A stretch of 64,000 nt of DNA, taken from a virus. Location of the stretch: positions 79,948 through 143,947 of the IMG/VR virus record IMGVR_UViG_3300037089_000505, one strand, 5' to 3'. The position numbers and the translations under genes are program-made. The notes beneath the pieces were generated by a model. The model did no database searches. It saw only the letters and a program-made list of their open reading frames with translations, and had not been told where the DNA came from. Within the stretch, counting starts at the first letter, position 1. Every line of letters begins with the position of its first letter. Below, piece after piece: positions 9,232-63,414 of the stretch.

Positions 9232-9404
9232 AAAGGCGCTACAGGATCTTTCTCGTAATTGTTATTTTGCTCACCTTGGGCAATATCTTCATGTTGGTCA
9301 TAAGCAATAATTGGCCAGGAAGAGTTTCCAGTATCATAGGATGCGCCGGCGGAACTGTAGCGGCAATAGCTTGTATTCGATTAATGAAGAGCGCAGTTGA
9401 CTGA
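9228..9404 (+). CDS. 58-residue small membrane protein
   Basis: ATGA overlap with the upstream peptide. Two hydrophobic segments (IFLVIVILLTLGNIFMLVI; a Gly/Ala-rich CAGGTVAAIACI) flank a short loop. The function is unknown. Confidence 0.55.
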   Translation: MKRRYRIFLVIVILLTLGNIFMLVISNNWPGRVSSIIGCAGGTVAAIACIRLMKSAVD

Positions 9405-41001: not shown

Positions 41002-41610
41002 ATGAGAAAATTATTTCTTGTTTTGTTTTTATTCGTAGCTGCTCTTTCATTTGCTAATAAGAGCTGGTATGTAGATCAGAATGGAACTGGCATAGGAAAC
41101 TGTGGACCGGCAACGGTAGCTATGATGATTTCTTATACAGAACACGTTCGCATTCCAGTACAAGTAATTCGGGAAGAGATAGGATATACAAGAGATGATG
41201 GCAGTACAGATCTTGAAGAGTTATCAGGTGTTCTTGAGCGTCATAAAATTCGTTATTCTAAAACAGAAATAAAGACGAAGGTTGATTTGGATGAGCTTTT
41301 GGAAACTCATCACATAGTTTTAGTTGACGTAGATATGAGCTATATCCCTAATAAGAGCAACTATGATAAAGGTCACTACTTGATTCTGTCTAGCTATAGT
41401 GAAGGGACTTATGAGGCTCAAGATCCTCTTAATGGATCTGATGTTCATTACAACGCTGATGCAATATGGTCAGCTATGAAAACGAGAGAAGTACTTGTAA
41501 CTGGTAATGGAAGACTGCCACTAGTAGGTTTTGGATTTATTACCCAAATACTATTAGTCATCGACATTAGTGCTATCGTAGTTCCGAAGAAAATTATTTT
41601 GCCGTGTTAG
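41002..41610 (+). CDS. secreted C39-like cysteine peptidase
   Basis: A signal peptide (KLFLVLFLFVAALSFA) is followed by WYVDQNGTGIGNCGPATVAM with the catalytic Cys, later GHYLILSS (His) and DPLNG (Asp/Asn): the papain-like peptidase C39-like family. A periplasmic or cell-surface role is likely. It begins one base after tRNA-Asp without a ribosome site and ends inside the next tRNA, whose bases 8-10 supply its TAG stop. Confidence 0.75.
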   Translation: MRKLFLVLFLFVAALSFANKSWYVDQNGTGIGNCGPATVAMMISYTEHVRIPVQVIREEIGYTRDDGSTDLEELSGVLERHKIRYSKTEIKTKVDLDELLETHHIVLVDVDMSYIPNKSNYDKGHYLILSSYSEGTYEAQDPLNGSDVHYNADAIWSAMKTREVLVTGNGRLPLVGFGFITQILLVIDISAIVVPKKIILPC

Positions 41611-41702
41611 CTCAGTTGGTAGCAGCGTTTCCTTGGAGAATGCTTTTTTAAGAGAGCACTGTCCTAAGGAAAAGGTCCCCAGTTCAATTCTGGGACACGG
41701 CT
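41601..41702 (+). tRNA. tRNA with a 28-nt hairpin insert in the anticodon loop (probably Thr GGT)
   Basis: All arms are canonical except the anticodon loop: acceptor GCCGTGT/ACACGGC, anticodon stem TTTCC/GGAAA, 5-nt variable loop, T-arm CCCAG-TTCAATT-CTGGG. The loop from 41633 to 41667 is 35 nt instead of 7. It contains a 7-bp hairpin (41641-41647 with 41652-41658), and GGA near the 5' side can pair with TCC near the 3' side. Removing 28 nt could leave loop TTGGTAA (Thr), TTCCTAA (Arg) or Ser anticodons. The short variable loop and T discriminator favour Thr. Confidence 0.8.
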
Positions 41703-56834: not shown

Positions 56835-56952
56835 TATCTTACGATCTAAAGTGTGATTTATTTACTGTCACACTACGCCCAGATACAATTACATATATGA
56901 CTCCTCTCGAGCAAAGAATCAAGCCTTATACACTTAGAGGTTGGAAAAAGAT

Positions 56953-57408
56953 ATGACGCACCAAGAAGAAATAGAATCCACCGAAAGAGCCAAAAGGTGG
57001 CTTCTGGGCCGTCTCAAGAAAATCGACAAACCAGTTTCCCTCATGAAGCTAGAACAAAATGGTCTACCAGAAGATGTTGAGTCGACTACCCTTCACAGAT
57101 GCTTCTGGTATCTCTTGGAAGATAGACTCATTAAGTTGACTGATGAGAATTTAGTCTACATCACTGAAAAAGGAAAACGTCAAACTCCAGATGAAGAAGA
57201 TGTCATGGGCTATGCGGAGCTTGCAAAATGTCCACCTGGGAAAAAGAAAGCTAGAGATTATGCGATCCACGGCCTCATGACAGACGGGGCTCATCATAAG
57301 CAATGGATCCTTGAGCAAATCCTTATTGCTCTTGGCTATGATTTAGAAGAAATTCACGAACAATTACATAATGTAGATTACGATTGGGAGCCGGGCATCC
57401 CGCCGTAA
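56953..57408 (+). CDS. putative winged-helix protein (151 aa)
   Basis: RAKRWLLGRLKKIDKPVSLMKLE... with a following LYITEKGKR-like strand (VYITEKGKR) is a winged-helix pattern, so a transcriptional role is possible. The C-terminal helical region (WILEQILIALGYDLEEIHEQ) could dimerise. No exact family. Confidence 0.55.
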   Translation: MTHQEEIESTERAKRWLLGRLKKIDKPVSLMKLEQNGLPEDVESTTLHRCFWYLLEDRLIKLTDENLVYITEKGKRQTPDEEDVMGYAELAKCPPGKKKARDYAIHGLMTDGAHHKQWILEQILIALGYDLEEIHEQLHNVDYDWEPGIPP

Positions 57409-57415
57409 AATATTT

Positions 57416-57541
57416 GGGAGTGTAGCTTAGAGTGCATAGTAAGGGCGCTACAGCATTGATCACACTACTGTAGAAGAGCTACTATGACGGCAGAGCGGTC
57501 TCTAACCGGGGCGAACGCTGGTTCGAATCCAGCCACTTCCG
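57416..57541 (+). tRNA. tRNA with a ~57-nt structured insert in the D-loop (anticodon probably TCT, Arg)
   Basis: Acceptor GGGAGTG/CACTTCC, D-stem GCTT/GAGC and T-arm GCTGG-TTCGAAT-CCAGC frame a tRNA. Between the D-stem halves lies an insert with CATAGTA (57435) pairing TACTATG (57480), and inside it CTACAG (57448) pairing CTGTAG (57468). The anticodon arm is weak (CGG-TCTCTAA-CCG, 3 bp) and would read TCT with C33. Could be a processed precursor or a decaying gene. Confidence 0.6.
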
Positions 57542-59574: not shown

Positions 59575-59663
59575 ACTGACGGAGATGGGTTTCTCCGCCC
59601 GATATGGCGAAGGCAGTTCGAGTCTGCCTCTGGTTAAACTGGGTTCGAGGCCCAGCGTCAGTT
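59575..59663 (+). other. tRNA-like element with two T-arm-like hairpins
   Basis: ACTGACG/CGTCAGT closes an 89-nt fold. Inside are GGAGA/TCTCC, CGCC/GGCG, GGCAG-TTCGAGT-CTGCC and a canonical T-arm CTGGG-TTCGAGG-CCCAG. One arm more than a tRNA; if GGCAG...CTGCC is the anticodon arm it would read CGA. Confidence 0.5.
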
Positions 59664-59668
59664 ATATC

Positions 59669-59868: not shown

Positions 59869-59876
59869 TGAGTTAT

Positions 59877-59994
59877 TAGACTTTGGAACCAGGCTCATAA
59901 CCTGGGCTGAAAGGTCCGCTATCCCGAGAGGGGGTCTATTTAATTAGAGACAATCGGTGCGACTCCGATAGGTAAGTAAGTGAGCCAAAGTCTA
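59877..59994 (+). other. tRNA-like element with a CAT-type anticodon arm
   Basis: A 10-bp closing helix TAGACTTTGG/CCAAAGTCTA encloses CCAGG-CTCATAA-CCTGG (Met/Ile2-like anticodon arm), CCC-GAGA-GGG, and ATCGG-TGCGACT-CCGAT (T-arm-like). No D-arm is found and spacing is not tRNA-like. Confidence 0.5.
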
Positions 59995-60039
59995 GTAACT
60001 TTTCTTTATGCCTCTAAGCTAACTATATGGAGGCAACAC

Positions 60040-61033: not shown

Positions 61034-61119
61034 TGTGGTATAGCTCAGCCTGGTCAGAGCGGCCGCCTGTTAAGCGGAAGGCCGAAAGGTTCACGGGGGT
61101 TCGAATCCCTCTACCACAG
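61034..61119 (+). tRNA. tRNA-Asn(GTT) with a hairpin in the variable loop
   Basis: Acceptor TGTGGTA/TACCACA, D-stem GCTC/GAGC, anticodon arm CCGC-CTGTTAA-GCGG, T-arm GGGGG-TTCGAAT-CCCTC, discriminator G. The variable region is 16 nt (AGGCCGAAAGGTTCAC) with a GGCC-GAAA-GGTT hairpin; Asn tRNAs normally have 4-5 nt here. Confidence 0.8.
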
Positions 61120-61138
61120 CGAAGAAGGAGCTTTTGTT

Positions 61139-61786
61139 ATGATTGAGTATCCATCAATAATCAATAGTTCAAAAGCTCCACGTAAGCCAATGATAGCTTT
61201 TGAAAAAATCGATGGCAGCAATATCCGCATTAAATGGACACACAAAAGGGGCTTTGACCTTTTTGGTAGCCGGCAACAGTTGCTTGACTCTAGTCATCCT
61301 AGTCTGGGCGGAGTAGTCCAGATCTTCAACGAGCGCTACAAAGATGCTCTTGAGGAAACTTTCAGACATGAGTATGGGAAAGAGAATGAGATCATTGTCT
61401 TCGGCGAATACTTTGGACCCAGCTCTTTCGCCGGAATACATAGCGATCCAATTTCAGCAATGAATTTCTATCTGTTTGATATCCTTTTTGTAAAAAAGAG
61501 CTACACAGAATTTCTTTTGCCACAAGATCTCGTCAAGATCTTCCCCAAATTCGAAAGATTTGGGATGCCTGTACCAAGAGTTGTCTATGAGGGGAACCTC
61601 ACTGATGATTTTATCAGACGGGTCCGCGAAAATGAATTCAATTTGAATGAGGGCGTCGTCTGCAAAGGCACTCAACGTCTTGGATCTTTCCGTGGCAAAG
61701 TCTGGATGTGCAAAATCAAAACGAACGCCTATCTTCAACGTCTCAAAACTAGATTCCAGGAGGACTGGAACAAGTATTACGAATAG
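61139..61786 (+). CDS. ATP-dependent RNA ligase (Rnl2-like)
   Basis: Motif I is AFEKIDGSNIRIKW (catalytic Lys ~23). GEYFGPSSFAG is motif III/IIIa, LNEGVVCKG motif IV and WMCKIKT motif V. At 215 residues it is a minimal nucleotidyltransferase domain with little beyond the core. Seals 3'-OH/5'-PO4 RNA nicks. GAAGGAG site follows tRNA-Asn directly. Confidence 0.88.
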   Translation: MIEYPSIINSSKAPRKPMIAFEKIDGSNIRIKWTHKRGFDLFGSRQQLLDSSHPSLGGVVQIFNERYKDALEETFRHEYGKENEIIVFGEYFGPSSFAGIHSDPISAMNFYLFDILFVKKSYTEFLLPQDLVKIFPKFERFGMPVPRVVYEGNLTDDFIRRVRENEFNLNEGVVCKGTQRLGSFRGKVWMCKIKTNAYLQRLKTRFQEDWNKYYE

Positions 61787-62800: not shown

Positions 62801-63361
62801 ATGATTTGCGAAAATTGCAGCAAAGATTTCTCTGAAGATTGGCGAATAGGTAAAAAGAGAGGACTATTACGGTTCTGCTCTTCACGATGTGCAAAGCGTC
62901 GAAAACAAACTGATGCGATTAGAGAGGCAAAAAGTAAAGCTAGCAAAGCTGCTTGGAAAAGAGGTGTCTATAAAAATCAATACAATCACACTTTTTCAAA
63001 AGCAGACAGAAAAAAGGGCATTGATACTTGTATAGAAAAAGCTAAAACAAGAAACGCAGAACTATTAGCCACTCATCAATATGAAAAAATGAGCAATGAG
63101 GTTAGAAGACGATTTATCCTCGACGAAGTTAATCATGCCTGTGAGTCATGTCATAATTCAGAGTGGCTTGGAAAACCAATATGGTTAGAAATACATCACA
63201 AGGATGATGATAATACGAACAATAAACGCGACAATCTTTTAGTTCTTTGTCCAAATTGTCATTCAGCAATAGATGAGAAATATAGGTTTAGAGGGCGAAG
63301 TAGAAAAAAGACCGAAAGTAGCTCAGTTTGGCTTAGAGCATCTGCCTTATCGGAAGCATAG
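62801..63361 (+). CDS. HNH homing endonuclease (186 aa)
   Basis: N-terminal zinc motif CENCSKDF...CSSRC, then CESCHNSEWLGKPIWLEIHH and NLLVLCPNCHS, the HNH core. The C-terminal 16 codons run into the interrupted tRNA-Ile gene, and its TAG stop lies in the tRNA insert. A free-standing endonuclease abutting an interrupted tRNA suggests it moves with, or targets, that locus. Confidence 0.82.
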   Translation: MICENCSKDFSEDWRIGKKRGLLRFCSSRCAKRRKQTDAIREAKSKASKAAWKRGVYKNQYNHTFSKADRKKGIDTCIEKAKTRNAELLATHQYEKMSNEVRRRFILDEVNHACESCHNSEWLGKPIWLEIHHKDDDNTNNKRDNLLVLCPNCHSAIDEKYRFRGRSRKKTESSSVWLRASALSEA

Positions 63362-63414
63362 GTTGAGTGCTTCAGATAAGCAGGGGGTCGGTGGTTCAAA
63401 TCCACCCTTTCGGA
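63312..63414 (+). tRNA. tRNA-Ile with a 27-nt hairpin insert in the anticodon loop
   Basis: Canonical otherwise: acceptor CCGAAAG/CTTTCGG, D-stem GCTC/GAGC, anticodon stem TCTGC/GCAGG, variable GGGTC, T-arm GGTGG-TTCAAAT-CCACC. The loop (63346-63379) is 34 nt. CTTATC pairs GATAAG and inside it GAAGCA pairs TGCTTC. Removing 27 nt leaves CTGATAA (anticodon GAT) or CTTATAA (TAT), both Ile. Confidence 0.85.

What the first reader, a model, noticed from the sequence alone, without database searches (positions are those of the whole stretch)
57416..57541. tRNA gene with a ~57-nt folded insert in the D-loop
Acceptor and T arms are intact and D-stem halves flank an insert with a two-tier stem (CATAGTA/TACTATG enclosing CTACAG/CTGTAG). 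D-loop insertions of this kind are not normal in bacterial or phage tRNAs. The weak 3-bp anticodon stem leaves open whether this is decay.
Basis: partly seen in the sequence, partly recalled or inferred. Interest (0 to 1): 0.7.

Follow-up and report, generated by a model that had tools for sequence, protein, structure and literature searches.

The report
Broken phage tRNA with D-loop hairpin
A large bacterial virus carries a tRNA gene whose ends are intact but whose D-loop holds a 55-base hairpin and whose anticodon arm is too short to work, so it is most likely a decaying tRNA gene; two other tRNAs of the same virus carry small, cleanly removable inserts in the anticodon loop.

Summary
At 57416-57541 (+) there is a tRNA-shaped sequence (Rfam tRNA 33.8 bits, cut-off 29): 7/7 acceptor pairs, 5/5 T-stem pairs, canonical T-loop, U8, A14, and D-stem halves separated by 64 nt instead of about 9. 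The insert is 55 nt and forms the two-tier stem described. Finding the 3' D-stem half, A21, GG and an arm at the right spacing is unlikely by chance (1 of 5000 shuffles).

It is not a normal tRNA with an intron. The stretch between D-stem and T-stem is 20 nt instead of 23, and neither removal of the insert nor any other single excision gives a canonical tRNA (best score 6.5, equal to shuffles; intact tRNAs of this phage score 9.9-14.4). The same test restores two other tRNAs of the window, 41601-41702 and 63312-63414, which carry 28- and 27-nt anticodon-loop inserts that ARAGORN missed in default mode. Three pattern scans (IMG/VR, GTDB) gave no other D-loop insert but many anticodon-arm inserts in phage tRNAs, a kind first reported in Lak megaphages.

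Best reading: a decaying tRNA gene (or tRNA-derived RNA without decoding function) in a tRNA-rich jumbo-phage relative. Modest interest; the anticodon inserts deserve more.

The parts
57416..57422 (+). acceptor stem, 5' strand GGGAGTG
   Evidence: 7/7 pairs with 57534-57540, G-U at 3:70
57425..57428 (+). D-stem 5' half GCTT (nt 10-13)
   Evidence: 4/4 pairs with 57493-57496
57429..57492 (+). expanded D-loop, 64 nt (normal about 9)
57435..57489 (+). 55-nt insert between G18 and G19 (register ambiguous by 1 base)
   Evidence: outside it the D-loop reads AGAGTG-GCA; insert unique in 3.26 Mb of held sequence
57435..57441 (+). outer insert stem 5' strand CATAGTA (pairs 57480-57486)
   Evidence: MFE fold
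57448..57453 (+). inner insert stem 5' strand CTACAG (pairs 57468-57473), 14-nt loop
   Evidence: MFE fold
57493..57496 (+). D-stem 3' half GAGC
57497..57516 (+). remnant of anticodon arm and variable region, 20 nt instead of 23; best fold GTCTC-TAACC-GGGGC
57517..57533 (+). T arm GCTGG-TTCGAAT-CCAGC
57534..57541 (+). acceptor stem 3' strand CACTTCC and discriminator G; no encoded CCA
41601..41702 (+). context: tRNA with 28-nt anticodon-loop insert; reads Thr(GGU) if the insert lies between nt 35 and 36
63312..63414 (+). context: tRNA-Ile(UAU) with 27-nt anticodon-loop insert
   Evidence: Rfam 53.2 bits
22300..23682 (+). context: RtcB RNA ligase gene
   Evidence: Pfam PF01139 1.5e-56
61139..61786 (+). 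context: RNA ligase gene (PF09414)
   Evidence: Pfam 5.3e-16

Best explanation
The locus is a decaying tRNA gene of a tRNA-rich, tailed jumbo-phage-like virus. A normal tRNA gene suffered two lesions: gain of a 55-nt imperfect-palindrome insert in the D-loop, and loss of about 3 nt from the anticodon arm. Shown: the intact acceptor, T and D halves, the insert, the short anticodon region, and the failure of every single excision to give a canonical tRNA. Inferred: that the RNA does not decode. If transcribed it may still fold into the acceptor/T half and be trimmed by RNase P, but no aminoacyl-tRNA useful to the ribosome is expected. The origin of the insert is unknown.
For: Only 20 nt between D-stem and T-stem instead of 23; every register lacks a 5-bp stem with a 7-nt U33 loop. 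Exhaustive single excisions: best 6.5, equal to shuffled interiors (mean 6.2; 60 of 150 at least as good); excision of the insert itself 4.0; intact tRNAs of the window 9.9-14.4. Positive controls: the same procedure gives 11.0 and 13.9 for the two anticodon-insert tRNAs (0 of 150 shuffles each). No homologue of the insert in GenBank phages or in related records, and no other D-loop insert in the pattern scans, as expected for a one-off lesion. The 3' part resembles phage tRNA anticodon arms with bases missing (SalR7 tRNA-Arg GCGGTCTTCTAAACCGC against GCGGTCTCTAACCG).
Against: All 16 pairs of acceptor, T and D stems are intact and the insert is itself well paired, which free decay would erode with time; decay must then be recent. 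The excision score was hand-made and requires canonical geometry. No transcript data.
Confidence: 0.62

Rival explanations
1. A tRNA-derived RNA with a non-decoding role: the tRNA ends are kept so that host RNase P, the CCA enzyme or tRNA-binding proteins recognise it, while D-loop hairpin and lost anticodon serve another purpose, for example a decoy for tRNA-cutting host defences, or an alanine-chargeable RNA through G3-U70.
For: All end-defining pairs and T-loop residues intact with the decoding part lost; G3-U70 present; other tRNA-like oddities lie close by (59575-59667, 59876-59996); the phage carries RtcB and two RNA ligases.
Against: No homologue or covariation; G73 rather than A73 for an alanine acceptor; a recently broken gene explains the same facts with fewer assumptions.
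Confidence: 0.2
2. An intron in the D-loop of a functional tRNA, cut out by an unknown endonuclease and sealed by the phage's RtcB or RNA ligase.
For: The D-loop left after removal of the 55 nt (AGAGTGGCA) is textbook; the phage has RNA ligases; its genome holds convincing anticodon-loop inserts.
Against: The joined product still has a broken anticodon arm (score 4.0); the junctions show no bulge-helix-bulge; pattern scans of viral and bacterial contigs gave no other D-loop insert.
Confidence: 0.06
3. Not a tRNA at all, or an assembly artefact: a chance T-arm plus acceptor pairing.
For: The covariance model leaves 68 nt unaligned and the score is low.
Against: 7 + 5 + 4 pairs with U8, A14, A21, GG and the T-loop consensus; 1 of 5000 shuffles reproduces the D/anticodon layout; the locus lies in a tRNA cluster.
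Confidence: 0.04

Closest known systems
Introns in tRNAs of Lak megaphages (Devoto et al. 2019, PMC6784885)
   Same: Extra sequence inside phage tRNA genes of a very large phage; described as enigmatic, some introns said to encode a possible tRNA. The two anticodon-loop inserts of this window appear to be of this kind.
   Different: Those were called with the eukaryote setting of tRNAscan-SE and checked against intronless copies; here the insert is in the D-loop and its removal does not give a working tRNA.
Archaeal and eukaryal protein-spliced tRNA introns (review PMC4090602)
   Same: Short inserts in tRNA genes, some at non-canonical positions.
   Different: No bulge-helix-bulge at the junctions; exons do not form a canonical tRNA; bacteria are not known to carry the splicing endonuclease (own knowledge).
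Group I introns of bacterial tRNA genes
   Same: Insertions in bacterial-type tRNA genes.
   Different: Those lie in the anticodon region and are several times longer (own knowledge on length); no group I match in Rfam.
Degenerate phage tRNA genes
   Same: tRNA body with broken decoding arm inside a phage tRNA array.
   Different: The long, well-folded D-loop insert is unusual.

Membership tests
canonical tRNA | 7-bp acceptor stem and 5-bp T arm with TTCRANY loop | tested here: met
canonical tRNA | D arm with short loop, A14, G18G19, A21 | tested here: not met
   64-nt loop; met only if the 55-nt insert is taken out
canonical tRNA | 5-bp anticodon stem with 7-nt loop and U33 | tested here: not met
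   20-nt region, no canonical register
functional intron-containing tRNA | removal of one contiguous insert gives a canonical tRNA | tested here: not met
   best 6.5 against 9.9-14.4 for intact tRNAs, equal to shuffles
archaeal-type tRNA intron | bulge-helix-bulge at the junctions (3-nt bulges, 4-bp helix) | tested here: not met
   fold shows an uninterrupted 7-bp outer stem and a 6x6 internal loop
Lak-type phage tRNA intron | same insert in related phage tRNAs, with intronless copies for comparison | tested here: not met
   no homologue of the insert
group I intron | group I covariance-model match | tested here: not met
   no such Rfam hit; 55 nt is too short
tRNA pseudogene | tRNA body with lesions that prevent decoding | tested here: met
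tRNA pseudogene | no mature charged product | not testable with these tools
   needs RNA from infected cells

The most novel reading that the evidence does not exclude
The locus makes a tRNA-shaped, non-decoding RNA whose D-loop hairpin and shortened anticodon arm were selected, for example as a decoy for tRNA-targeting host defences or as a chargeable non-ribosomal RNA.
Probability: 0.13. Interest if true: 0.7.

Novelty: new member of a known kind. Interest (0 to 1): 0.32.

Why it matters
By itself the locus is probably a broken gene and a caution: a tRNA covariance hit with intact ends can hide a lost decoding arm. Its use lies in the contrast. The same excision test that fails here succeeds for two other tRNAs of this phage, and pattern scans show that small anticodon-arm inserts are frequent in phage tRNAs and missed by default annotation. 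Some of those inserts are mini-tRNAs with an encoded CCA whose exact removal leaves a canonical 7-nt anticodon loop, which makes a splicing route by host RNase P plus 3' processing plus phage RNA ligase directly testable.

Tried and rejected
Close relatives through flanking protein 56941-57408 gave only a shared C-terminal domain in unrelated phages. An exact pattern from the 5' junction gave nothing. The 84.7-kb record with a 100% identical tail-sheath protein (G003) does not contain this region. Alternative D-arms (GCTT/GGGC, GCTT/TAGT) and an anticodon arm made of the inner hairpin were considered: they lose G18G19 or leave a 14-16-nt anticodon loop and a 43-nt variable region. A mini-tRNA reading of the insert (7-bp stem, ACG tail) fails because there is no T-arm. 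A Trp-like amber-suppressor ancestry (CUCUAA) was considered but needs bases that are absent. The one search hits that looked like D-loop inserts were tandem tRNA pairs, non-tRNA matches or an anticodon insert; the GTDB hits were one tandem pair and three sequences without a matching acceptor stem.

Full report
What was checked. The window is the last 64 kb of a 143,947-base IMG/VR virus record that encodes a contractile-tail sheath, UvsX-like recombinase, DnaB-like helicase, ribonucleotide reductase, RtcB, two RNA ligases, a tmRNA and many tRNAs. Its RNA ligase at 61139-61786 is 68% identical to one in a 305.8-kb phage contig with 54 tRNA matches (G001) and 47% identical to one in a 214.7-kb contig (G002).

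The locus. At 57416-57541 (+) Rfam finds a tRNA at 33.8 bits, the weakest match above the cut-off in the window (others 52-67). The acceptor stem (7/7), T arm (5/5), U8, A14 and D-stem halves GCTT/GAGC are intact. The D-loop is 64 nt. The insert is 55 nt between G18 and G19; without it the loop would be AGAGTGGCA. It folds into a 7-bp stem, a 6x6 internal loop, a 6-bp stem and a 14-nt loop. The D-loop placement, judged by D-stem 3' half, A21, GG and a following 5-bp arm at the right spacing, is reached by 1 of 5000 shuffles. The two-tier stem is reached by 5 of 200,000 mononucleotide shuffles, although by free energy the insert is only moderately unusual (z -1.9). The Rfam model itself does not choose this layout: it takes a weak local D-arm and leaves 68 nt out.

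The anticodon region. Between GAGC and the T-stem are 20 nt, GGTCTCTAACCGGGGCGAAC, where a tRNA has 23. Aligned with phage tRNAs, this stretch looks like an anticodon arm that has lost bases. Possible registers are 3 bp with a 7-nt loop and C33, 4 bp with a 7-nt loop (ARAGORN calls the joined flanks Val(AAC) with a G-G mismatch and no nt 26), or 5 bp with a 5-nt loop. None is canonical.

Could it be an intron-bearing tRNA? All single excisions were scored for tRNA features. Normal tRNAs of the window score 9.9-14.4. The best excision for this locus scores 6.5, no better than shuffled interiors (60 of 150 at least as good), and excision of the insert itself scores 4.0. As positive controls, 41601-41702 (28-nt anticodon-loop insert) reaches 11.0 and 63312-63414 (27 nt) reaches 13.9, above all shuffles.

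Is the D-loop insert recurrent? The insert has no relative in GenBank phages, in 18 related records, or in 3.26 Mb of held loci. Pattern scans for 40-70-nt D-loop inserts in consensus tRNAs gave none in IMG/VR (40 matches, all explained otherwise) and none in GTDB genomes (4 matches). A scan for target-like bodies with 40-70 extra nt anywhere gave about 13 distinct tRNA-like bodies with acceptor and T-arm pairing; in those that are single tRNAs the extra sequence follows a normal D-arm. These scans require exact consensus words and so miss divergent tRNAs; records very near the window may be left out.

Literature. Introns in phage tRNAs were reported for Lak megaphages in 2019 (PMC6784885). 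No paper on D-loop inserts in phage tRNAs was found in the library searched; the library is incomplete.

Verdict. The sequence feature is real and unusual, but the simplest account is a recently broken tRNA gene. A retained non-decoding tRNA-like RNA is possible and cannot be excluded without transcripts or sister genomes.

Noticed in passing
window 41601-41702: tRNA with a 28-nt hairpin insert in the anticodon loop, missed by ARAGORN in default mode; TTGG^AGAATGC...GTCC^TAA gives Thr(GGU), complementing tRNA-Thr CGT (39139) and TGT (40849). ARAGORN's intron mode places it differently, as Ser(GGA).
   Followed up: partly
window 63312-63414: tRNA-Ile(UAU) with a 27-nt hairpin insert in the anticodon loop; an HNH endonuclease ORF (62801-63361) ends inside the insert.
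   Followed up: partly
L255:4254-4297 (+), L272:3776-3819 (- strand coordinates), L288:6288-6336 (- strand coordinates): Anticodon-loop inserts that are mini-tRNAs (7-bp acceptor + T arm + encoded NCCA, 44-49 nt); exact removal leaves canonical loops CUUAUAA, CUUUUAA, CUUUUAA. This suggests excision by RNase P and 3' processing, then ligation.
   Followed up: partly
L144:12811-12936, L159:8413-8537, L164 (-) 9282-9400, L229, L251, L260, L266, L267, L296: Anticodon-arm inserts sharing a hairpin followed by a CAGCA(A) motif: by eye a possible homologous insert family.
   Followed up: no
L259, L304, L233, L238: Inserts that seem to interrupt the 5' strand of the anticodon stem (CG^TAAAA...GGGTTACTT^AGC), restoring CGAGC-CTGTTAA-GCTCG if removed (by eye).
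   Followed up: no
G001:C1:55611-55721 (L053), G002:C1:173650-173745 (L056): tRNAs of the two nearest phages with 28- and 24-nt anticodon-loop inserts; read Leu(UAA) and Met(CAU) if the insert lies between nt 35 and 36.
   Followed up: partly
window 59575-59667; L021:11122-11214: tRNA-like sequences each with two T-arm-like hairpins and a closing 6-7-bp stem.
   Followed up: no
window 59871-60001: Sequence closed by a ~16-bp stem (AGTTATTAGACTTTGG/CCAAAGTCTAGTAACT) holding a Met-like anticodon arm CCAGG-CTCATAA-CCTGG and a T-arm-like hairpin; no Rfam match.
   Followed up: no
window 61034-61120: tRNA-Asn(GTT) with a long variable arm, just upstream of the RNA ligase gene.
   Followed up: no
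L184:61-135 (Salmonella phage SPLA5a): Annotated tRNA-Ile whose best anticodon loop is TCGATAA, with C at position 33.
   Followed up: no
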